Below are positions 7,175-19,370 of a stretch of 32,331 nt of DNA, in pieces. Where the stretch lies: IMG/VR virus record IMGVR_UViG_3300050121_000217, positions 1 through 32,331 of that record, one strand, 5' to 3'. The notes under the pieces were generated by a model. The model saw only the letters and a list, made by a program, of their open reading frames with translations. It had not been told where the DNA came from and did no database searches. Every line of letters begins with the position of its first letter. Position 1 is the stretch's first letter. This DNA comes from a virus. A program made the position numbers and the translations under genes.

Positions 7175-7262
7175 AACTATAAAATAAACTTAAACTTGCT
7201 TACATAATATGTTGATTAATGCAATAATTTATGATAAAATAAGTAAACATGGAGGGAAATAT

Positions 7263-8636
7263 ATGAAAATTAAATTTAATGCATTCTTAGCATCTATTAT
7301 TATTTTAACAACTTTATCATCTTGTTCAAGTGTTTCAAATGGTTTAAAAGAAGGTCTTAATTCAGCTAAATCACAAATTTCATCAACAATAAATGATTCT
7401 TCATCGAATTTATTATTAAGTAAAAGTAATTCGATTGTTTCAAGCTCTCAATCATCCAAAGCAGCAGTTGTTACACAAAAAGTAAGTGGCAACCTAAAAG
7501 TAAGTTATATAGATGTAGGTCAAGCGGATAGCATATTAATAACACTAAATCAACATTCAATGCTAATTGATGCAGGAAACAACGAAGACGGTACAACTGT
7601 CGTTAATTACATTAAATCTCAAGGTGTTAGTAAGTTTGATTATGTTATTGGTACACATCCACACGAGGATCATATCGGTGGCTTAGATAATGTTATTAAT
7701 ACATTTAGCATTAATACAATAATAATGCCAAATATTACGAGTACAACAAAGACATTTGAGGACGTACTTACAGCAATAAGTAATAAAAAACTAAAAATAA
7801 CAAAACCAGTGTCAGGCACAACTTATTCATTAGATGGAGCGGTCATAACCATATTAGCACCAAATAATAGTAGTTATGATGATTTGAATAATTATTCAGT
7901 AGTGATTAAACTTGATTATGGTAAAACCTCTTTCATATTTGCTGGAGATGCAGAAAATATATCTGAATCTGAAATGCTATCTAAAAAATATAATTTAAAA
8001 TCCGATGTCTTAAAGGTTGGACATCATGGGAGTGATTCTTCTACAACTTCTAATTTCTTAAAAGCTGTAAGCCCTAAATATGCAATTATATCTGTGGGAA
8101 CTGGTAATACATATGGTCATCCAACGCAAAATACTTTGAATAAATTAAGCACTGCTGGAGTTATAGTTTATAGAACTGATTTAAGTGGTACTATTATTGC
8201 AACAAGTGACGGTAATACAATTAAATTTGACAAACAAGCTTCACCTATAAAACCACAAGCACCTCCTGTTTCTTCAATTGTTTCAACAGTATCAAAAGTT
8301 GCTTCGTCAAATATTACTTCATCAATACCAACTGTTATTTCATCTGGAGCCACTGCAACAACATCTAATATAACACTTGTGAGTTTAACAAGTCCAATTT
8401 CAAGAAATGCAATTGCAACCATCGCTATTAAAGGAAAGCCAAACACAGAATATAGCATTGCAGTTCATTATAGTTCTGGGGATTCTAAGGCTTCTGGTTT
8501 AGAAAACAAAGTATCAGATGCAAACGGAGATGTTTCTTGGTCATGGAAAATTGGTGGTCAGACAACATTGGGGACTTATGGTATAACTATTAGTGGAGGT
8601 AGCCAAACATTAAATTCTAATTTTACAGTTCAATAG
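7263..8636 (+). CDS. Secreted metallo-beta-lactamase-fold lipoprotein (ComEC-like hydrolase domain)
   Basis: The ATG at 7263 follows GGAGGG at good spacing; the frame opens earlier, but the signal peptide starts here. Residues 1-20 form a lipoprotein signal (basic start, FLASIIILTTLSSC), so the protein should be anchored outside the membrane. A Ser/Asn-rich linker follows. The metallo-beta-lactamase domain shows SYIDVGQADSILI, HPHEDHIGG at residues 132-140, a FAGDA motif, and GHHGSDSS then GHP, as in the C-terminal nuclease-like domain of ComEC. After a Ser/Thr/Pro-rich linker, the last ~90 residues look like an Ig-like beta sandwich. Such stand-alone proteins occur widely in Firmicutes. The substrate is not known; extracellular nuclease or phosphodiesterase activity is inference. 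No ComEC membrane channel is encoded nearby, so a direct competence role is unlikely. Confidence 0.85.
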   Translation: MKIKFNAFLASIIILTTLSSCSSVSNGLKEGLNSAKSQISSTINDSSSNLLLSKSNSIVSSSQSSKAAVVTQKVSGNLKVSYIDVGQADSILITLNQHSMLIDAGNNEDGTTVVNYIKSQGVSKFDYVIGTHPHEDHIGGLDNVINTFSINTIIMPNITSTTKTFEDVLTAISNKKLKITKPVSGTTYSLDGAVITILAPNNSSYDDLNNYSVVIKLDYGKTSFIFAGDAENISESEMLSKKYNLKSDVLKVGHHGSDSSTTSNFLKAVSPKYAIISVGTGNTYGHPTQNTLNKLSTAGVIVYRTDLSGTIIATSDGNTIKFDKQASPIKPQAPPVSSIVSTVSKVASSNITSSIPTVISSGATATTSNITLVSLTSPISRNAIATIAIKGKPNTEYSIAVHYSSGDSKASGLENKVSDANGDVSWSWKIGGQTTLGTYGITISGGSQTLNSNFTVQ

Positions 8637-8770: not shown

Positions 8771-9079
8771 ACGAAAAGGTGTAGTAACCCGTTTTGTGGA
8801 CACAAAAAAAGTGCAAACAATTGCTTGTCGTCTTTACCATATTTATGTTGATTTATTGGATAACATAGGATATACTGTTAAGTGAAAACAAAGTGTTTTT
8901 TTAGTGTTGTTAAAAATCGCATATTGCCTATAATTACCAGTTGATAAATAAGTTATTTAAATTTGGTTCTAAAAAATCAATGGCATTGATCAATCATTTT
9001 TATGAATATTTATCAGATATTATATTAGAGTTTTTATTGCCACTGCTAGTTTATGTTAACAGATAATTTGGAGGTACAT

Positions 9080-10573
9080 ATGTATTCAGTAAATCTATAT
9101 GCTTTGTCTCGAATAAATGACAAAGATATATTTTCCAAATATTATAATTTCTTATCAAAAAGGAAAAAGAAAATTGTCGTAAAAAAACATGAACAAGAGT
9201 CACTAAAAACTTTAGTTGATACTTTGATTGCTAATGATATAATTTTAGATGAATTAGATTTCTTTTTTTATAATTATGCAATTCCGCAAATTGGCAAAGA
9301 GTTTGATATATTGAAAATTGATGATAACTATGTACTAAATATTGAACTTAAAAGCCAACCAGTTACAGAAGAGGCAATGAAAAATCAATTATTAAGAAAC
9401 AAATATTATTTAAGCCATTTGCAACAGGAACAATATTTTTTCACATATGTTGATTCTATAAATAAATTTTACACCTTAAGTAAATCTTCTAAATTGCTGG
9501 AGTGTAGTATTTCTCAGCTAATTACTATACTAAAACAAATGTCCAATCCGTATAGAGAAAATATTGATCAGCTCTTCCGTATATCAGATTTTTTGGTGTC
9601 TCCATTGAATACGCCTCAAGAGTTCATAAATGATGATTATTTTTTAACACAGCAACAAGAAGATTATAAAAATCAAATTCTAAATATTATTAGCAATAAA
9701 CGGTCGGATTTACACCAATTTTTCAGTATTAAAGGATCGCCAGGAACAGGTAAGACTCTACTTCTTTATGATATTGCTAAAAAGCTTTGTGATGAAAACG
9801 ACTGCTGTATGATCCATTGTGGAAATCTCTCTAATGGTCATTTGTATTTAAATACAAAAATCAAAAATTTAGATATCATATCAGCAAAGCAAGCTGGAAC
9901 AATAGAGGATTTTTCAAAATTTAATTTTATATTTGTAGATGAATCACATCGAATTTATAATAGCACGTTTAATCGTATAGCTGATTCTGTAAAACAAAGT
10001 AACACAACTTGCTTTTGGAGCCTAGATGCCAGACAAACGCTTTCCAAGGCTGAAAGACGTAGGGATATCGCTTCAAATGTTTCGGCATTACCTACACTTA
10101 TTGAATATAAATTATCGGATAAAATTAGAACCAATGTTGAACTTGCTAGTTTTATTAAAGCTTTGTTTGATTTAAGTAAATGCCAAAAGAATCAAATATA
10201 CACAAATGTAAGGATTTCTTTTGCAAACACGCCACAAGAAGCGAAAAAATTAATAGTATATTACAAAAATTTGGGGTATGTATTTATACATTGTACACCC
10301 TCTTCATATTTTTCTAGTTCCTTAGATGCTTATCGTGGTACCTATAACACACATAGTGTGATTGGACAAGAGTTTGATAATATATTAATGGTAATGGATA
10401 AACATTTTTACTATGATCAACAAGGCAAGCTACAAGCTACAACCCATCCCAATCCTGATTATTTATATGATAAATTATTATATCAAGGATTAACTCGTGT
10501 TCGTGAGAAATTAAGCATCATTATAATTGAAGATGAATCTCTGTTTAATAGCATAATTTCAATTGTTTTATAA
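9080..10573 (+). CDS. PD-(D/E)XK nuclease-like domain fused to a DUF2075 (Schlafen-type) ATPase/helicase
   Basis: The ATG at 9080 follows GGAGGT at good spacing. The N-terminal ~200 residues contain GKEFDILKIDDNYVLNIELK, which fits a PD-(D/E)XK nuclease core (Asp76, Glu89, Lys91). Residues 219-226 are a Walker A motif (GSPGTGKT), and FIFVDESHR is the Walker B. SLDARQTLS resembles helicase motif III, and the C-terminus ends with the superfamily 1 motif YQGLTRVREKLSIII. This matches DUF2075 proteins, a group-3 Schlafen-like helicase family. The product is probably a nucleic-acid motor with its own nuclease. The setting, beside a Gabija-like pair and broken accessory genes, suggests phage or plasmid defence; that role is inference. 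It appears to be a single-gene unit. An alternative is a general repair helicase. Confidence 0.8.
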   Translation: MYSVNLYALSRINDKDIFSKYYNFLSKRKKKIVVKKHEQESLKTLVDTLIANDIILDELDFFFYNYAIPQIGKEFDILKIDDNYVLNIELKSQPVTEEAMKNQLLRNKYYLSHLQQEQYFFTYVDSINKFYTLSKSSKLLECSISQLITILKQMSNPYRENIDQLFRISDFLVSPLNTPQEFINDDYFLTQQQEDYKNQILNIISNKRSDLHQFFSIKGSPGTGKTLLLYDIAKKLCDENDCCMIHCGNLSNGHLYLNTKIKNLDIISAKQAGTIEDFSKFNFIFVDESHRIYNSTFNRIADSVKQSNTTCFWSLDARQTLSKAERRRDIASNVSALPTLIEYKLSDKIRTNVELASFIKALFDLSKCQKNQIYTNVRISFANTPQEAKKLIVYYKNLGYVFIHCTPSSYFSSSLDAYRGTYNTHSVIGQEFDNILMVMDKHFYYDQQGKLQATTHPNPDYLYDKLLYQGLTRVREKLSIIIIEDESLFNSIISIVL

Positions 10574-10842: not shown

Positions 10843-10979
10843 TGCATTTCAGCAATACCAGTATTCAAATAGGTAGTAGAATGGCAATTTGTTAAATCCT
10901 AAAGTATGCATTATCCATACAATCAGTTTTCTATTGTGGGCATTTGACGATGACTTATAAATATAAAGGATGTATTGAA

Positions 10980-11956
10980 ATGATAGACAAAGGAAATGTC
11001 TCCTTTTTTAATGGTAAGAGTATTGTAAAACATACAAACACAAACCAGAAAATTTATCACTACACATCTCCGATGGGTCTTTATTCCATTATAGAAAATA
11101 AAAGGGTGTGGTTTACAGACTGCCAATTTATGAATGACATGTCGGAATTTGTGTACATCAAAAAAGTTCTTTTACATGCCCTAGACTCGAAAGAATGGAA
11201 AAACGTCAAAGATATGCAGGAGTATGCAGACTATATTTTGTCGACTCCTTATCAATCATTTGAATTAAATGAACATGACGCAAATAAGCCATTTTCTTTC
11301 TGTTTTACTGATTCAAGATATTACTTATTTTGTACATCACTAAAATCAGACAGCCATAATATGTGGAGCTATTTTATGCATAATGGAAATTATACAGGCT
11401 ATAACATTGGTTTTGATGTTGCCCGATTTGTTAATCTATTTTCGTCTTTTCCTGGCGTAACTTTAACACATGGAAAGGTAATTTATGATGAGGATGAACA
11501 AGTGAAACAGGTAAAAGACAAAATAGGTCTTCTCAATATTCAATTTGAAAAAGAATTGGAAAAAAAAGCAAATATTCTGATCAACATGGAAATGAGTATG
11601 ATCCAGAAGAAATTTTTATTAACGAATATCAAGATAATCTATCTGAATTTTTGCAAGAACGTTGTCTGTTTTTTAAACACCATGCATTCGCAAGTGAAGA
11701 CGAATATCGTTTTGTGCTAAAAGTGAAATGCAACTATGCTGGAGATAATTTAATATTAAAACATCGAATTGGAAATAATGGAGTTATCATTCCTTATAGA
11801 GAGTTTAGCTTTGATCCTAAACAGGTTATTGATAAAATTATTTTAGCTCCAATGATGGAAAAGGAAATTGCTAAAGCAGGTCTAATTAGTTTATTGGGAC
11901 TTTCATATGAAAAGCAGTTTGATATTAAGTATTCTGAGATTGATGTCCGCTTTTAG
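10980..11956 (+). pseudogene. DUF2971 protein gene split by one -1 frameshift in an A8 run
   Basis: The ATG at 10980 follows AAAGGATG. The first frame shows the DUF2971 start (YHYTSPMGLYSIIENKRVWFTDCQFMND in two adjoining segments) and FCFTDSRYYLFCTSLKSDSHNMWSYF in the middle. After the run of eight A (11560-11567) this frame drifts into unrelated sequence. The -1 frame continues as a proper DUF2971 tail (FFKHHAFASEDEYRF, then IILAPMMEKEI) to 11956. Joining at the A run gives 325 residues, a normal length. DUF2971 proteins are of unknown function and common in accessory and defence regions. The shift could be a true mutation, phase variation, ribosomal or polymerase slippage on A AAA AAA G, or a sequencing error, so the gene may still yield some full-length product. 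Confidence 0.7.
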
Positions 11957-13464: not shown

Positions 13465-15093
13465 ATGAAAATTGAGAAAATCAAAATAACTAACTATAAA
13501 CTTTTACGCGATGTTGAGTTAGAGCTTAATGAGGGAACGAACATTTTTGTTGGCCAAAATGATTCAGGGAAAAGCTCAATCTTAGAGGCAATCTCCATTG
13601 TGACAACTGGAAAACTCGACGGCTATGTGTTTGAACGTCAAATCAAAGCCAATATATTCAACAGCATTGTACGGAAAGAGTATGTTGAGTCGTTAAAATA
13701 CTATCCTGATGTATTGGAGCCGCCTCAAATATTGTTTGAAGCGTATTGTGAAAATGCAGATGTAAACAGAGAATATGCTGGTACAAACAATTTTTACAAT
13801 GAAGATGTACCTGGAATTAGAGTCTTGGTGTCCTTTGATTCAGAGTACGCAAATACTTACTGTAAAATGCTTAAATGTGGAGACATATATGATATTCCAA
13901 TTGAATTCTACAAAGTGACTTATACATACTTTAAGGGTGAAAAAGTAATATACAGATTTTGTCCGTTGAAGGCTGCAATCATTGACACGACACGAAAAGA
14001 CTATTCTTATGTAGTTGACCGATTTGTTTCTGAGAACATCACCGAATATCTTTCAGGGCAGGAACAAGTTGATCTTAGCACTGCGTACCGTAAAAGCAGA
14101 AATTATTTTCATACGAACGATACAGTTATAAAACTTAATGAAAGCGTCAAGAAAAACGTACATATTGGGGAACGGACAATCTCCATTGATTTAAAAGAAG
14201 AAGATATTGATGATTGGAAAAAGCAGATGTCAATCGTTGTGGATGACACGCCATTTGAAAATATTGGATTTGGAAGCCAGAATATCATCAAAATTGAGTT
14301 GGCACTAAAGCATACTACAGAACAGGTTAACATGGTTCTTATGGAAGAGCCGGAAAACAATCTTTCCTTTACTAACATGCAGAAATTATTGAAACACATA
14401 CAGAAAAGTAATGATAAGCAAATATTTATTTCCACTCACAGCAGTTTTGTTGCTAATAAGCTCGGATTGGAAAATTTGTTCGTTATTAATTGCGGTAATG
14501 CTGTATCCTTGCGTAAATTGAATGAACAGGCGAAACGATATTTCAAAAAGCTTCCGGGCTATGATACGCTACGTCTTGTCCTTGCCGAAAAAGTAATCTT
14601 AGTGGAGGGTCCTACGGATGATTTGATCATCCAGCGTGCCTTCATTGATGAAAATGGAGTATTGCCGTCTGAGCAAGGTATTGACATCATTGTTGTGGAT
14701 TCTCTCGCATTTAAGCGTTACAGCGACATTGCTATTCTAATGAAGAAAAAAGTGCGTATTGTTACAGACAATGACGGCTCAATCCAAGAGAATGTAATCA
14801 ACAAGTATGCTGACTATCTGGGAAGTGAATACATTGAGATAGTTCATGAGACAAACGAAGCACTCAGAACAATTGAGCCAAGTATAGTAGATGTGAATTG
14901 TGAAAACAGTATCCCTACAGAATCGTTCAAACAAGCGATCTCAAAGAGCAATTCCATGATGAAAAAAAGTAAAGATCAAATCCTTGATTTTATGAAAAAT
15001 AACAAAGTGGAATGGGCGATGAGGGTTTTTGAGGCAACAGACAAGATTGTTTATCCGAGGTATATAAAAAATGCTATCAAAGAATTTAATTAG
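13465..15093 (+). CDS. gajA: OLD-family ATPase/TOPRIM endonuclease, GajA-like
   Basis: The ATG at 13465 follows ACGGAGG. The N-terminal half is an ABC/SMC-type ATPase: KIKITNYKLLRD, Walker A GQNDSGKSS (30-38), Walker B MVLMEEPEN (about 290-298), and the switch IFISTHSSF (about 320-328). The C-terminal half is a TOPRIM nuclease domain: VILVEGPTDD with the metal-binding Glu near 381, and VRIVTDNDGS near 432-441. At 542 residues it is close to GajA. In Gabija systems GajA is a nucleotide-sensing DNA-nicking enzyme that assembles with the helicase GajB. Here the next gene is a UvrD-type helicase overlapping by 23 nt, the expected order. All core motifs are intact. The alternative is another OLD-helicase pair outside strict Gabija. 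Confidence 0.75.
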   Translation: MKIEKIKITNYKLLRDVELELNEGTNIFVGQNDSGKSSILEAISIVTTGKLDGYVFERQIKANIFNSIVRKEYVESLKYYPDVLEPPQILFEAYCENADVNREYAGTNNFYNEDVPGIRVLVSFDSEYANTYCKMLKCGDIYDIPIEFYKVTYTYFKGEKVIYRFCPLKAAIIDTTRKDYSYVVDRFVSENITEYLSGQEQVDLSTAYRKSRNYFHTNDTVIKLNESVKKNVHIGERTISIDLKEEDIDDWKKQMSIVVDDTPFENIGFGSQNIIKIELALKHTTEQVNMVLMEEPENNLSFTNMQKLLKHIQKSNDKQIFISTHSSFVANKLGLENLFVINCGNAVSLRKLNEQAKRYFKKLPGYDTLRLVLAEKVILVEGPTDDLIIQRAFIDENGVLPSEQGIDIIVVDSLAFKRYSDIAILMKKKVRIVTDNDGSIQENVINKYADYLGSEYIEIVHETNEALRTIEPSIVDVNCENSIPTESFKQAISKSNSMMKKSKDQILDFMKNNKVEWAMRVFEATDKIVYPRYIKNAIKEFN

Positions 15094-16198
15094 ATGCGCT
15101 GCTGCTGGTGCTGGTAAGACATGGGGAATTTGCCATGACGCTTTGGAAATAGTTAATGCGGGTGCAGATGAAAAAGTATTAATAACGACCTATACCAATA
15201 AAGGTGTAGAAGCTGTTGAAAAAGAGCTAAAAAAACAGAATTTTGGAGTTCTTGATAATCGTGTTGTTGTTAGCTCATGGTATCAATTTTTGCTTCGTGA
15301 TCTGATTAGACCATACCAAACTTTTTTGACAGGCATAAACGAGGTTAAGTCCTTTGACTTTTCTAATATGTATAGCAAAACCAATTATGGCAGAACCGGA
15401 ACAAGAGCACGTTATGTGAATCGCAATGGAGATGTTAAAGCTAATTATGCCAGCGAAATGGTGACACAGTTAGATAAATTAAGTGGTGGGAAAGTATTGC
15501 AGCGGTTAGAGGCAATATATTCTTATGCTTTCGTTGATGAAATTCAGGATATGGCTGGCTATGACTTGGCAATAATTGATATGCTAATAAACTCTTCTAT
15601 TTCTACGGTTTGTGTCGGGGATAACAAACAAGCAACATACAGAACACATAACACACAAAAAGGCAAAAAACAAACTGGAGCAAATGTTTGGGTGTACTTC
15701 TATGATGTTAAAAAAAGAGGTTTTGCCGAAATTGAAGACAACTTATGCAGTCGTAGATTTAACAAAAAAATCTGTCAGTTTGCTAATAAGGTTTTTCCTA
15801 ACGAAAACAATATCACTACTTGCATGAATGAAAAAACCGTGCATGATGGTGTGTTTCTTATTCGTCCTGAGGATGTTCCAGTATATTACGACTGTTACAA
15901 GCCAATCGTGCTAAAGTATGATAAAACCACACCTACAGGAGGCTATTCTTCATTTAATTTTGGACAGTGTAAGGGGATGACTTTTGAACGGGTTCTGATA
16001 TATCCCAATAAACCTCTGCTAAAATTTATATGTGGTGAAGATCTTAGCAGCCCAGCAAAATATTACGTAGCTTTCACCCGTCCTAAATATAGTCTTGCTA
16101 TCGTGGTCGAAGATATGAGAATTTCTAATAGCTTTCATAAGACAATAATTAGCACCGAAAGCACAGAAATATCGGCTTGGGTATACAATGAACAATAG
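15071..16198 (+). CDS. gajB: Compact UvrD-type (superfamily 1) helicase, GajB-like
   Basis: The ATG at 15071 lies inside the end of the upstream nuclease gene (23-nt overlap), implying translational coupling. In 375 residues all main superfamily 1 motifs appear in order: Walker A AAAGAGKTWG (10-19), Ia TTYTNKGVEAVEKEL, II YAFVDEIQDMAG, III TVCVGDNKQATYRT, a motif IV-like SRRFNKKICQFAN, V GQCKGMTFERVLI, and VI YYVAFTRPKYSLAI. The protein is clearly shorter than the ~490 residues I recall for the founding GajB, with little room for 1B and 2B subdomains. In Gabija the helicase partner senses or processes DNA ends and activates GajA. A complete defence role is inferred from the pairing. I see no terminator after the stop. 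Confidence 0.72.
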   Translation: MLSKNLIRCAAAGAGKTWGICHDALEIVNAGADEKVLITTYTNKGVEAVEKELKKQNFGVLDNRVVVSSWYQFLLRDLIRPYQTFLTGINEVKSFDFSNMYSKTNYGRTGTRARYVNRNGDVKANYASEMVTQLDKLSGGKVLQRLEAIYSYAFVDEIQDMAGYDLAIIDMLINSSISTVCVGDNKQATYRTHNTQKGKKQTGANVWVYFYDVKKRGFAEIEDNLCSRRFNKKICQFANKVFPNENNITTCMNEKTVHDGVFLIRPEDVPVYYDCYKPIVLKYDKTTPTGGYSSFNFGQCKGMTFERVLIYPNKPLLKFICGEDLSSPAKYYVAFTRPKYSLAIVVEDMRISNSFHKTIISTESTEISAWVYNEQ

Positions 16199-16412: not shown

Positions 16413-18005
16413 TTATATTATCCAAGGCAATTCTGTGCCATCCTTAAAGGCAAAAGTGATTGCATGCTCCGTATGTACCGTTACTAGTTCCACTGCTGCT
16501 TGCCAAAGTGCCTCATCAAACTCTGTTAGAAGTATATCACTTTCACTGAGCATTTTGAGAAACGCTTTTATATGCTCACGCTTGGCGGCTCTCTCCAGCC
16601 GTTTTTCAATAATTTGAGAATGCTTTCTTTTGACTGTTTCATAACGTTCAACCAAGGCGGTATATCTTTTTTGGTATTCAGCCTGGTCAATGGCTGAATG
16701 GGCATTTTCGTCAACACATTCTTGAATCTTATTCAGAGCCACATCACTTTCACCTTGAAGTTTAATGCTCTCTTTGTCAAGGGTTGTGCTATCAGTTAAG
16801 GTTTCTATGATAAGCCCACAGCTTGTAATAATTTCACCTTTGTTTTCAATTAGGCTGTTAAATGCTCCCACAAATGCTTGCTTGAGAGTGTCCTCATAAA
16901 AATGCGGTGTTTTGCATTTGTCGGCGTTTTTAAACTTCCCATTGCATTGCCATATTATTTTTCTGTATTTGCTTGTGGAGTGCCAAACTTTACTTCCGTA
17001 AAAGCTACCGCATTCACCGCAAACAACCTTGCTTGAAAAGCACCCACCACTGGTTGTATATCGTCCTTCACTTTTTCTCTTTTTGAATTCATGCTGTGCA
17101 AGGTCAAATACTTCAGATGAAATAATGGCAGAGTGGCTGTGTTCAACATAGTACTGTGGCACCTCACCCTCGTTTACCTTTTTCTTTTTAGTGAGAAAAT
17201 CTTCTGTAAATTTCTTTTGAAGAAGTGCCGAACCTTTGTATTTCTCGTTTTGAAGTATACTCTCAACAGTACTTGATTGCCATATAACTTTGCCAGACGG
17301 TGTTGGTACACCACTTGCTGTTAAATGCTTTGCAATACTTGATGGTGCTTTTCCCTCAAGAAACAGCTTATAAATGAGCCGAACAACCTCGGCTTGCTTT
17401 TCAATAACTTTAGGTCGCCCATCTTCACCCTTTTCAAAGCCGAGGAAATGCTTGTATGGTAGGCTAACTTTTCCATCTGCAAAACGTTTGCGTAAACCCC
17501 ATGTAACGTTTTCACTGATTGACCTTGATTCTTCTTGTGCCAGTGAGCTCATTATAGTTATAAGCAATTCACCCTTACTATCAAGAGTGAAAATATTTTC
17601 TTTCTCAAAATAAACCTCAACGCCTTTTTCTTTAAGTTGCCGCACTGTGGTAAGCGTATCAACGGTATTGCGAGCAAAGCGGCTCACGGACTTTGTTATT
17701 ATCATGTCAACTTTGCCATTCAAGGCATCAAAAATCATCCTATTAAAGCCATCACGCTTTTTGGTACTGGTTGCTGAAATGCCCTGGTCTGTGTAAACCT
17801 CAACCAAATCCCATAGGACGTTTGCATTTATGTAATTTGTGTAATAATCCATTTGTGCATCAAAGCTTGATAACTGTTCATCATTATCAGTTGAAACTCT
17901 TGCATAGGCAGCCACTCGCTTTTTGGCTGATATTCCTACAAAATTTGGTGAGAAACGATTTACAATGGCTGGTATGCAGGTTACTACTGTTTTTGCTGTT
18001 TGCAT
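16413..18005 (-). CDS. Large serine recombinase 1 (prophage integrase/excisionase class)
   Basis: The 530-residue product has an N-terminal resolvase/invertase domain with VAAYARVSTD (nucleophile Ser38) and ITKSVSRFARNTVDTL with the conserved arginines. A recombinase domain follows (GFEKGEDGRPKVIEKQAEVV, then IAKHLTASGVPTP). A zinc ribbon comes next (VCGECGSFYG, later CNG and CKTPH), and a long coiled coil spans about 430-500. The ATG at 18005 has AAGGAG upstream and overlaps the preceding recombinase by 22 nt, so the two are translationally coupled. It is the last phage gene at the left end of the prophage, where the attachment site is expected (16199-16412). Two adjacent recombinases may act together or at different steps. 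No catalytic residue appears lost. Confidence 0.93.
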   Translation of the reverse strand: MQTAKTVVTCIPAIVNRFSPNFVGISAKKRVAAYARVSTDNDEQLSSFDAQMDYYTNYINANVLWDLVEVYTDQGISATSTKKRDGFNRMIFDALNGKVDMIITKSVSRFARNTVDTLTTVRQLKEKGVEVYFEKENIFTLDSKGELLITIMSSLAQEESRSISENVTWGLRKRFADGKVSLPYKHFLGFEKGEDGRPKVIEKQAEVVRLIYKLFLEGKAPSSIAKHLTASGVPTPSGKVIWQSSTVESILQNEKYKGSALLQKKFTEDFLTKKKKVNEGEVPQYYVEHSHSAIISSEVFDLAQHEFKKRKSEGRYTTSGGCFSSKVVCGECGSFYGSKVWHSTSKYRKIIWQCNGKFKNADKCKTPHFYEDTLKQAFVGAFNSLIENKGEIITSCGLIIETLTDSTTLDKESIKLQGESDVALNKIQECVDENAHSAIDQAEYQKRYTALVERYETVKRKHSQIIEKRLERAAKREHIKAFLKMLSESDILLTEFDEALWQAAVELVTVHTEHAITFAFKDGTELPWII

Positions 18006-19312
18006 GAGTTGTTACTCCTTTTCAAATATTCAAGCCGATGTTCTCGTGCCTGTTGTTTTGCTTCATCGCTCCAACTATCTTTGCGTGATTTATTTTCCCA
18101 TGATTTTTTCACTAACCTACCATCAAAAAATACAAAGACCAGCTTGTTAAACTCTGGCACTTGAATTTCCTTGATATTCTTAACAAATGTCGATTCATCA
18201 AAACTTGTTATCCCTAAAACCTCAGCTGTTATAGAAAGCAAAATATCCTCTGGAATTTGCTTGGTATGACAGAACGATTTACCAAACTGTAGGTAAGTGG
18301 AGCAGTTCCACGAAATACATCCATGAACAGTTTTTCGCTTGTAGTGCTTACCGCAACAAGTGCAGTGAATTTTCCCTGTGAATGGGTAATGGCTGGTTGC
18401 TTTTTGCCCATAATTTTTCGCCCTGTTCTCTGCCATAATGTCTTGTGCCGTTTTAAAGGTTTGTGCATCAATTATTAAGGGATGGGTGTTTTCTGCATAA
18501 TACTTTGGAAGAACACCTTTATTCCACACCAGTGCTTTGGTTAAATGGTCTACACGATATTTTTTTTGTAAAAGAGCATTTCCAGTATATTTTTCGTTTT
18601 TAATAATGGCAGCAATGCGTTCCGAATTCCAAGTGCCACCCATTAAGGTTGCTACATTCATATCTCGCAGTTTTCTTGCAATTAAGCTACAGCCCATGCC
18701 ATTTATGTAATCATCAAAAATCATTCTAACAATTTCTGCTTGCTCTGGGTCGATTTCAATATCACCTTTTATAATATTGTACCCATACATAAACCGTAGA
18801 TTGGCAAGTTCACCATCCTGAAACTGCTTTCGTATTCGCCATTTGCAATTTTCACTTACAGATAAGCTTTCTGCTTGTGCAAATGAAGCGAGGATGGTAA
18901 GCATTAACTCACCATCCCCACTCATACTGTGGATATTCTCTTTTTCAAATAAGACATCAACATTAAGGCTTTTAAGCTCACGAACTACTTCAAGCATTGT
19001 TACGGTATTCCTAGTGAGCCTGGAGATTGATTTTGTAATAATCATATCAATTTTTCCATTACGGCAATCTGTAAGTAGCCTTTGGAACTCTGGTCTGTTT
19101 TCCTTTGTGCCAGATAGTGCTTCATCTGAATAAACACCCATGTACTCCCAACCACGTTGATTTTGAATATATTCGCTGTAATAGCTTATCTGTGCTGACA
19201 ATGAATGGAGCATTGCATCTTTGCCACTTGATACTCTTGCATAGGCAGCAACACGTTTTTTAGCTGGTGCTTTTGGTGCTAAAGGCTCGGTTCTCGTTAT
19301 GTTTAGTTCCAT
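17984..19312 (-). CDS. Large serine recombinase 2
   Basis: The start at 19312 (MELNITRTEP) has GGGAG upstream, giving 442 residues. The catalytic domain has VAAYARVSSG (Ser28) and ITKSISRLTRNTVTMLEVV. The recombinase domain (EIDPEQAEIVRMIFDDYING, later IARKLRDMNVATL) and a zinc ribbon (HCTCCGKHYKR, WNCSTYLQFGKSFC) follow. It resembles recombinase 1 in plan but is clearly diverged and lacks that protein's long C-terminal coiled coil, ending in a basic, Gln-rich tail. The pair, with the small SHOCT-like protein upstream, is a layout seen in clostridial prophages and integrative elements. Whether both are needed for integration cannot be told from sequence. Confidence 0.92.
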   Translation of the reverse strand: MELNITRTEPLAPKAPAKKRVAAYARVSSGKDAMLHSLSAQISYYSEYIQNQRGWEYMGVYSDEALSGTKENRPEFQRLLTDCRNGKIDMIITKSISRLTRNTVTMLEVVRELKSLNVDVLFEKENIHSMSGDGELMLTILASFAQAESLSVSENCKWRIRKQFQDGELANLRFMYGYNIIKGDIEIDPEQAEIVRMIFDDYINGMGCSLIARKLRDMNVATLMGGTWNSERIAAIIKNEKYTGNALLQKKYRVDHLTKALVWNKGVLPKYYAENTHPLIIDAQTFKTAQDIMAENRAKNYGQKATSHYPFTGKIHCTCCGKHYKRKTVHGCISWNCSTYLQFGKSFCHTKQIPEDILLSITAEVLGITSFDESTFVKNIKEIQVPEFNKLVFVFFDGRLVKKSWENKSRKDSWSDEAKQQAREHRLEYLKRSNNSCKQQKQ

Positions 19313-19370
19313 TAAAATCACTCCCTCTAACACCCATGTTAAACCTAATCTTGATACATAGCAAGTCAAT

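What the first reader, a model, noticed from the sequence alone, without database searches (positions are those of the whole stretch)
13465..16198. Compact Gabija-like defence pair with a shortened GajB
The OLD nuclease keeps its ATPase and TOPRIM motifs, and the overlapping second gene carries all superfamily 1 helicase motifs in only 375 residues. That is over 100 residues less than I recall for the founding GajB, with little room for the 1B/2B subdomains. If it is active, it would be a minimal Gabija or a distinct OLD-helicase subtype.
Basis: partly seen in the sequence, partly recalled or inferred. Interest (0 to 1): 0.72.

Follow-up and report, generated by a model that had tools for sequence, protein, structure and literature searches.

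The report
Compact Gabija with 2B-less helicase
This is a two-gene bacterial defence system of the known Gabija kind, from a widespread branch in which the helicase has naturally lost its regulatory 2B subdomain, so it offers a ready-made test of which parts of the helicase Gabija needs.

Summary
The pair is real and intact: gajA 13465-15093 (542 aa) overlaps gajB 15071-16198 (375 aa) by 23 bp. GajA carries every ATPase and two-metal TOPRIM catalytic residue checked. GajB carries SF1 motifs I-VI. PADLOC's 2023 models already name both proteins, and two of its GajB models are equally short (365 and 369 positions). The shortness is therefore neither truncation nor unique. In 43 pairs from plasmids, genomes and viral contigs GajB is 337-412 aa, adjacent to a GajA relative. 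These GajBs form one clade (100/99), separate from PcrA/UvrD and nested inside GajB, beside the branch with B. cereus GajB. Their GajA partners form a matching clade (r = 0.94). The saving is specific: the 2B subdomain (103 residues in B. cereus GajB) is 11-16 residues here, while 1B is kept (80 against 83). Likely mechanism: GajB docks on a GajA tetramer through 1A/1B and works as an unrestrained DNA-dependent ATPase/translocase gating the nuclease. Defence activity, complex formation and helicase activity are inferred, not shown. No paper I found describes the 2B-less branch.

The parts
13465..15093 (+). gajA: class 2 OLD-family nuclease, ABC-type ATPase plus TOPRIM, 542 aa
   Evidence: PADLOC GajA E 1.7e-166; Pfam AAA_15 and OLD-like_TOPRIM; AF2 pLDDT 82, best PDB hit BcGajA 8sm3_A E 1.5e-17
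13552..13575 (+). GajA Walker A, residues 30-37 (GQNDSGKS)
   Evidence: K36 conserved in 43/43 short-class GajAs
14581..14775 (+). GajA TOPRIM, residues 373-437, with E381, D385, D435, D437; E471 and K514 lie further downstream
   Evidence: Pfam PF20469; aligned to BcGajA E379/E383/D432/D434/E513/K541
15071..16198 (+). gajB: short UvrD-like SF1A helicase, 375 aa, lacking subdomain 2B
   Evidence: PADLOC GajB PDLC00148 (369 positions) E 4.6e-92; AF2 pLDDT 88.3, pTM 0.86
15071..15093 (+). 23-bp overlap of gajA and gajB
   Evidence: the same 23-bp overlap in Planococcus and Xanthomonas pairs
15101..15121 (+). GajB motif I (Walker A), residues 11-17 (AAGAGKT)
15278..15517 (+). GajB subdomain 1B, residues about 70-149 (kept)
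   Evidence: 80 residues against 83 in BcGajB
15536..15550 (+). GajB motif II, residues 156-160 (DEIQD)
   Evidence: D, E, Q, D invariant in 43/43
15908..15943 (+). GajB residues about 280-291: the place where 2B is inserted in canonical GajB (12 residues instead of 103)
16413..19369 (-). two tandem large serine recombinases (16413-18005 and 17984-19369) bordering the pair; context, not part of the system
   Evidence: Pfam Resolvase, Recombinase, Zn_ribbon; the same neighbourhood in other viral contigs
9053..10573 (+). Nhi/AbiO-like defence gene in the same island; context
   Evidence: PADLOC AbiO E 4.5e-150, Nhi E 3.5e-146

Best explanation
An intact two-gene Gabija system of a widespread, monophyletic short subtype. 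[quoted passage not shown] GajB is a minimal SF1A motor of 1A, 1B and 2A with no 2B subdomain. Most likely working, inferred from B. cereus Gabija and Rep: GajA forms a multimer, probably a tetramer. GajB docks on the GajA ATPase domain through 1A/1B. GajB then binds exposed DNA ends or single-stranded DNA of incoming phage or plasmid DNA and hydrolyses ATP, acting as a translocase or unwinding motor without 2B autoinhibition. This relieves or directs GajA so that its TOPRIM domain nicks and degrades the DNA. Shown: sequence, motifs, 2B loss, clade membership, constant pairing, predicted fold. Inferred: complex formation, DNA activities, trigger, defence.
For: Profile hits over the full length of both proteins. 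Catalytic residues conserved in 43/43. Every short GajB found with its upstream gene intact in the fetched DNA sits directly next to a GajA relative. Short GajBs one clade 100/99, and intermediate plus short nested within GajB beside the BcGajB branch (96/85), away from nine PcrA/UvrD. GajA clade matches; Mantel r 0.941, 0/2000 permutations. 2B is 11-16 residues in all 43 against 103 in BcGajB, 1B kept. AF2 GajB aligns to PcrA 1qhg Z 25.4 and BcGajB 8sm3_B Z 19.9; its residues 2-226 align to BcGajB 9-224 at 2.7 A (8tjy_B). Literature: BcGajB residues 1-223 bind GajA and 224-416 do not (PMC10822852); the interface is 1A/1B (PMC10781630); Rep without 2B is an activated helicase (PMC6158625; PMC13238157). 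Defence island: Nhi here, type III R-M in L153.
Against: B. cereus GajB showed no helicase activity alone or with GajA (PMC10681800), so the motor role is open. The GajA residues that contact GajB in B. cereus (K94, R97) are not conserved here, though they also vary among canonical GajAs. Motif V loses the T and H of TxH and the Q-motif segment is missing. No complex was predicted and no activity tested.
Confidence: 0.72

Rival explanations
1. A decayed or truncated Gabija in which GajB lost part of its gene and the pair is inactive.
For: GajB is 119 residues shorter than the founding member.
Against: Same length and same missing segment in 43 pairs across several phyla; catalytic residues invariant; both frames open; predicted fold of high confidence.
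Confidence: 0.05
2. GajB is not a motor on DNA but a DNA-terminus sensor and (d)NTP hydrolase, as proposed for B. cereus GajB, so 2B is dispensable because no unwinding is needed; cells die by nucleotide depletion and nicking.
For: BcGajB lacked unwinding activity (PMC10681800) and is reported as a (d)ATP/(d)GTPase stimulated by DNA (review PMC10568477). The short clade keeps all ATPase motifs while losing 2B and the motif V TxH.
Against: Rep without 2B unwinds better, so loss of 2B fits a motor equally well; Gabija in P. aeruginosa PA14 is non-abortive and acts on DNA ends (PMC12407980).
Confidence: 0.3
3. An independent pairing of a stand-alone OLD nuclease with an unrelated short UvrD-like helicase, a separate system that only resembles Gabija.
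For: Long stems on both clades (1.29 and 0.93); GajA about as short as class 1 OLDs.
Against: GajB nested in the GajB clade with 99/98 separation from PcrA/UvrD and two other helicases, and 96/85 beside the BcGajB branch; class 2 catalytic residues conserved; matching GajA and GajB distances. In the GajA tree the deep branches near stand-alone OLDs are weak (84/55), so this is not fully excluded for GajA.
Confidence: 0.1

Closest known systems
Gabija of Bacillus cereus VD045 (GajA 578 aa, GajB 494 aa; PDB 8SM3, 8J4T)
   Same: OLD nuclease followed by an adjacent UvrD-like helicase; same catalytic residues; GajB 1A, 1B and 2A; both predicted folds match
   Different: GajB here lacks 2B and the N-terminal Q-motif segment, has an extra stretch after motif III and a changed motif V; GajA is about 40 residues shorter after the DxD motif
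PADLOC-DB GajA PDLC00102/PDLC00098 and GajB PDLC00148/PDLC00140
   Same: Full-length matches at the same lengths (532-534 and 365-369 positions); this is the same subtype, already named Gabija
   Different: No structural or functional description of the subtype found in the papers searched
Planococcus lenghuensis plasmid pair WP_077591370/WP_198038787
   Same: Closest named relative found: GajA 49.2%, GajB 46.6% identity, same 23-bp overlap
   Different: On a mobilisable plasmid, between an IS21 element and an integrase region
Class 1 OLD (P2 Old, Thermus scotoductus OLD, PDB 6P74)
   Same: ATPase plus TOPRIM; fold match Z 21.1 to 6P74
   Different: Class 1 are lone genes; this one is always next to a helicase and groups apart from three stand-alone OLDs

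Membership tests
Gabija, broad sense (class 2 OLD plus UvrD-like helicase) | GajA-type OLD nuclease recognised by GajA models | tested here: met
   PDLC00102 E 1.7e-166; best non-Gabija model shown, AriA, E 2.7e-23
Gabija, broad sense (class 2 OLD plus UvrD-like helicase) | Adjacent UvrD-like SF1A helicase recognised by GajB models | tested here: met
   23-bp overlap; PDLC00148 E 4.6e-92
Gabija, broad sense (class 2 OLD plus UvrD-like helicase) | ATPase and two-metal TOPRIM residues of class 2 OLD (E400, E404, D455, D457, T506, E508, K562 of BpOLD) | tested here: met
   E381, D385 (D for E), D435, D437, T469, E471, K514, matched by alignment through BcGajA and the order of residues described in PMC6755086
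Gabija, broad sense (class 2 OLD plus UvrD-like helicase) | Helicase groups with GajB, not with house-keeping PcrA/UvrD | tested here: met
   49 GajB rows together 99/98, nine PcrA/UvrD outside
Canonical (B. cereus type) Gabija architecture | Four-subdomain GajB with 2B | tested here: not met
   12 residues in place of 103; 11-16 in all 43 of the clade
Gabija, broad sense (class 2 OLD plus UvrD-like helicase) | 4:4 GajA-GajB complex | not testable with these tools
   No complex prediction available; GajA-binding region 1A/1B is kept
Gabija, broad sense (class 2 OLD plus UvrD-like helicase) | Both genes needed for anti-phage defence | not testable with these tools
   needs phage assays
Class 1 stand-alone OLD | Single gene without a helicase partner | tested here: not met
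   helicase partner in every relative with intact flanks

The most novel reading that the evidence does not exclude
A mechanistically distinct Gabija branch in which loss of 2B makes GajB a constitutively unrestrained motor, so that control has moved to GajA or to the changed motif III/V region, giving a different trigger or target range (for example conjugating plasmids) from canonical Gabija.
Probability: 0.25. Interest if true: 0.7.

Novelty: new variant of a known kind. Interest (0 to 1): 0.45.

Why it matters
Whether GajB is a real helicase, and what its 2B subdomain does, is open: B. cereus GajB has 2B yet showed no unwinding. Here evolution has deleted 2B in a whole clade while keeping the motor motifs and the GajA-binding subdomains, which predicts that 2B is dispensable for Gabija function and makes that testable directly. 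The branch is not rare: relatives occur on over a thousand enterobacterial plasmids as well as in several phyla.

Tried and rejected
ApsAB (anti-plasmid helicase/nuclease plus Argonaute-like pair) was considered from memory and rejected: its paper describes an SF2 helicase with a PD-(D/E)XK domain, not OLD/UvrD. The idea that E. coli UTI89's Gabija might be the short type on pUTI89 was checked and dropped: no such pair is annotated on that plasmid. Known phage genomes gave no match to GajB, and a single-sequence scan of viral contigs gave none; the alignment-based scans then found many. The genome search 'relatives' is not available for a virus record. Paper searches for a described short or 2B-less GajB found none, but most subscription journals are not held. 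An effort to map the conserved GajA-GajB contact residues failed because these positions vary even among canonical pairs.

Full report
WHAT IS THERE. The window is an IMG/VR virus record of 32,331 bases. Its right part is a prophage read from the minus strand: capsid, tail, holin and endolysin, ending in two tandem large serine recombinases (16413-19369). To the left, on the plus strand, lie gajA (13465-15093, 542 aa) and gajB (15071-16198, 375 aa), overlapping by 23 bp. Further left are a DUF5677 gene, a DUF2971-like gene that appears split between two frames, an Nhi/AbiO-like defence gene, a metallo-beta-lactamase-fold gene, a tRNA-Ala and a pyruvate phosphate dikinase gene, which looks like bacterial chromosome.

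IDENTITY. PADLOC models name both proteins with full-length matches: GajA PDLC00102 E 1.7e-166, GajB PDLC00148 E 4.6e-92 and PDLC00140 E 8.7e-91. The last two models have 369 and 365 positions, so short GajBs were already in that 2023 library under the name Gabija. The predicted GajA (pLDDT 82) has BcGajA as its best Foldseek match, E 1.5e-17, and TsOLD as best VIA-align match, Z 21.1. The predicted GajB (pLDDT 88.3, pTM 0.86) has a Gabija complex chain as its best Foldseek match and aligns to PcrA at Z 25.4 and BcGajB at Z 19.9.

IS THE HELICASE TRUNCATED? No. Relatives were collected from plasmids, genomes and viral contigs. In all, 43 short pairs were compared: GajB 337-412 aa and GajA 518-640 aa by longest open frame, the GajA gene directly upstream, mostly with an overlap. 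Canonical GajBs sampled the same way are 502-651 aa, and an intermediate group is 457-477 aa (the B. cereus row there is the 469 residues read from a PDB alignment, full length 494). In sampled genomes the short type was found in 6 of 398 of the phylum of a Clostridia MAG and 11 of 398 of the phylum of Microvirga (Pseudomonadota), counting matches whose open frame is 350-414 aa. It also has relatives on more than a thousand plasmids, mostly Klebsiella and Escherichia, where the identity is only about 24-29%.

WHICH PART IS MISSING. Published subdomain limits of BcGajB (1B 73-155, 2B 314-416; PMC10681800) were carried over by alignment. 1B: 83 residues in BcGajB, 80 in the window, 71-94 in the clade. 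2B: 103, 12 and 11-16. The 2A part before 2B is also shorter (91, 55, 51-61). The Q-motif segment before motif I is reduced. In addition the clade has a stretch after motif III with a conserved T, and motif V reads NxGxxKG instead of TxHxxKG. Motifs I, Ia, II, III, IV and VI keep their key residues. The intermediate group is also reduced in the 2B region (17-67 residues), so the loss may have come in steps; this is inference.

PHYLOGENY. In a 63-row GajB tree the 42 short GajBs are one clade (100/99), next to the intermediate group (98/89). With nine PcrA/UvrD rows as outgroup and two long rows removed, GajBs stay together (99/98) and the short plus intermediate group lies beside the BcGajB branch (96/85). 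The GajA tree gives the same short clade (100/99) and the same sister (99/94), apart from three stand-alone OLDs; its deepest branches are weak. Distances in GajA and GajB agree (Mantel r 0.941, 0 of 2000 permutations; related sequences are not independent, so this shows co-inheritance rather than a probability). The window's nearest kin in both trees are Planococcus L045, viral contig L085, L054 and L046.

HOW IT PROBABLY WORKS. Known for B. cereus: GajA tetramer with GajB dimers on either side (PMC10781630); GajB 1-223 binds GajA while 224-416 does not (PMC10822852); GajA nicking is inhibited by nucleotides (PMC8136825). Known for PA14 Gabija: non-abortive, acts on phage DNA ends not protected by RecBCD (PMC12407980). 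Known for Rep: removing 2B activates unwinding but impairs displacement of bound proteins (PMC6158625; PMC13238157). The short GajB has exactly the parts that bind GajA and burn ATP. I infer that it docks as in B. cereus and acts as an unrestrained motor, or alternatively as an end sensor and ATPase. A testable corollary from Rep is that it would be poorer at pushing proteins off DNA and so favour naked DNA ends.

CONTEXT. Several viral contigs carry the short pair directly beyond a pair of serine recombinases related to those of the window (L085, L087, L090, L103, L133). In L153 the order is holin, endolysin, an HTH-gene homologue, recombinases, Gabija, type III restriction-modification, then a second recombinase pair facing the first. 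L150 and L151 carry nicking-initiator and amidoligase genes instead of lysis genes upstream, so they look like other mobile elements. Whether the pair is inside the element (cargo beyond the integrase) or in the bacterial flank of the insertion site was not settled: no attachment site was determined.

VERDICT. A genuine, intact Gabija of a widespread short subtype. As an annotation it is ordinary and already covered by PADLOC; as architecture, a clade-wide loss of 2B, I found no description. Interest is moderate because it makes the role of GajB and its 2B testable.

Noticed in passing
window 9053-10573 (+): Nhi/AbiO-like nuclease-helicase defence gene (PADLOC E about 1e-146 to 1e-150), making the flank a small defence island.
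   Followed up: partly
window 10944-11956 (+): DUF2971/PDC-S31-like gene appears as two overlapping frames (10944-11720 and 11651-11956), which looks like a frameshifted gene.
   Followed up: no
window 16413-19369 (-); L085, L087, L090, L103, L133: Tandem large serine recombinases next to short Gabija pairs of different sub-clades in several viral contigs: a recurrent neighbourhood, cargo site or insertion preference.
   Followed up: partly
L048, L049 and about 1,700 plasmid records: A divergent branch of the short pair (GajB 340 aa, about 25% identical GajA) sits beside vapBC on Klebsiella and E. coli plasmids.
   Followed up: partly
L070, L102, L104, L105, L106: Intermediate GajBs (457-477 aa) with a reduced but different 2B region, sister to the short clade.
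   Followed up: partly
window 7209-8636 (+): Metallo-beta-lactamase-fold gene with weak matches to defence-associated MBL proteins (LmuA, PDC-M48B) and to the ComEC C-terminal domain.
   Followed up: no
L098/L146: The GajA of this viral contig is broken into two open frames (191 and 330 aa) ahead of an intact short GajB: a possibly inactivated copy.
   Followed up: no
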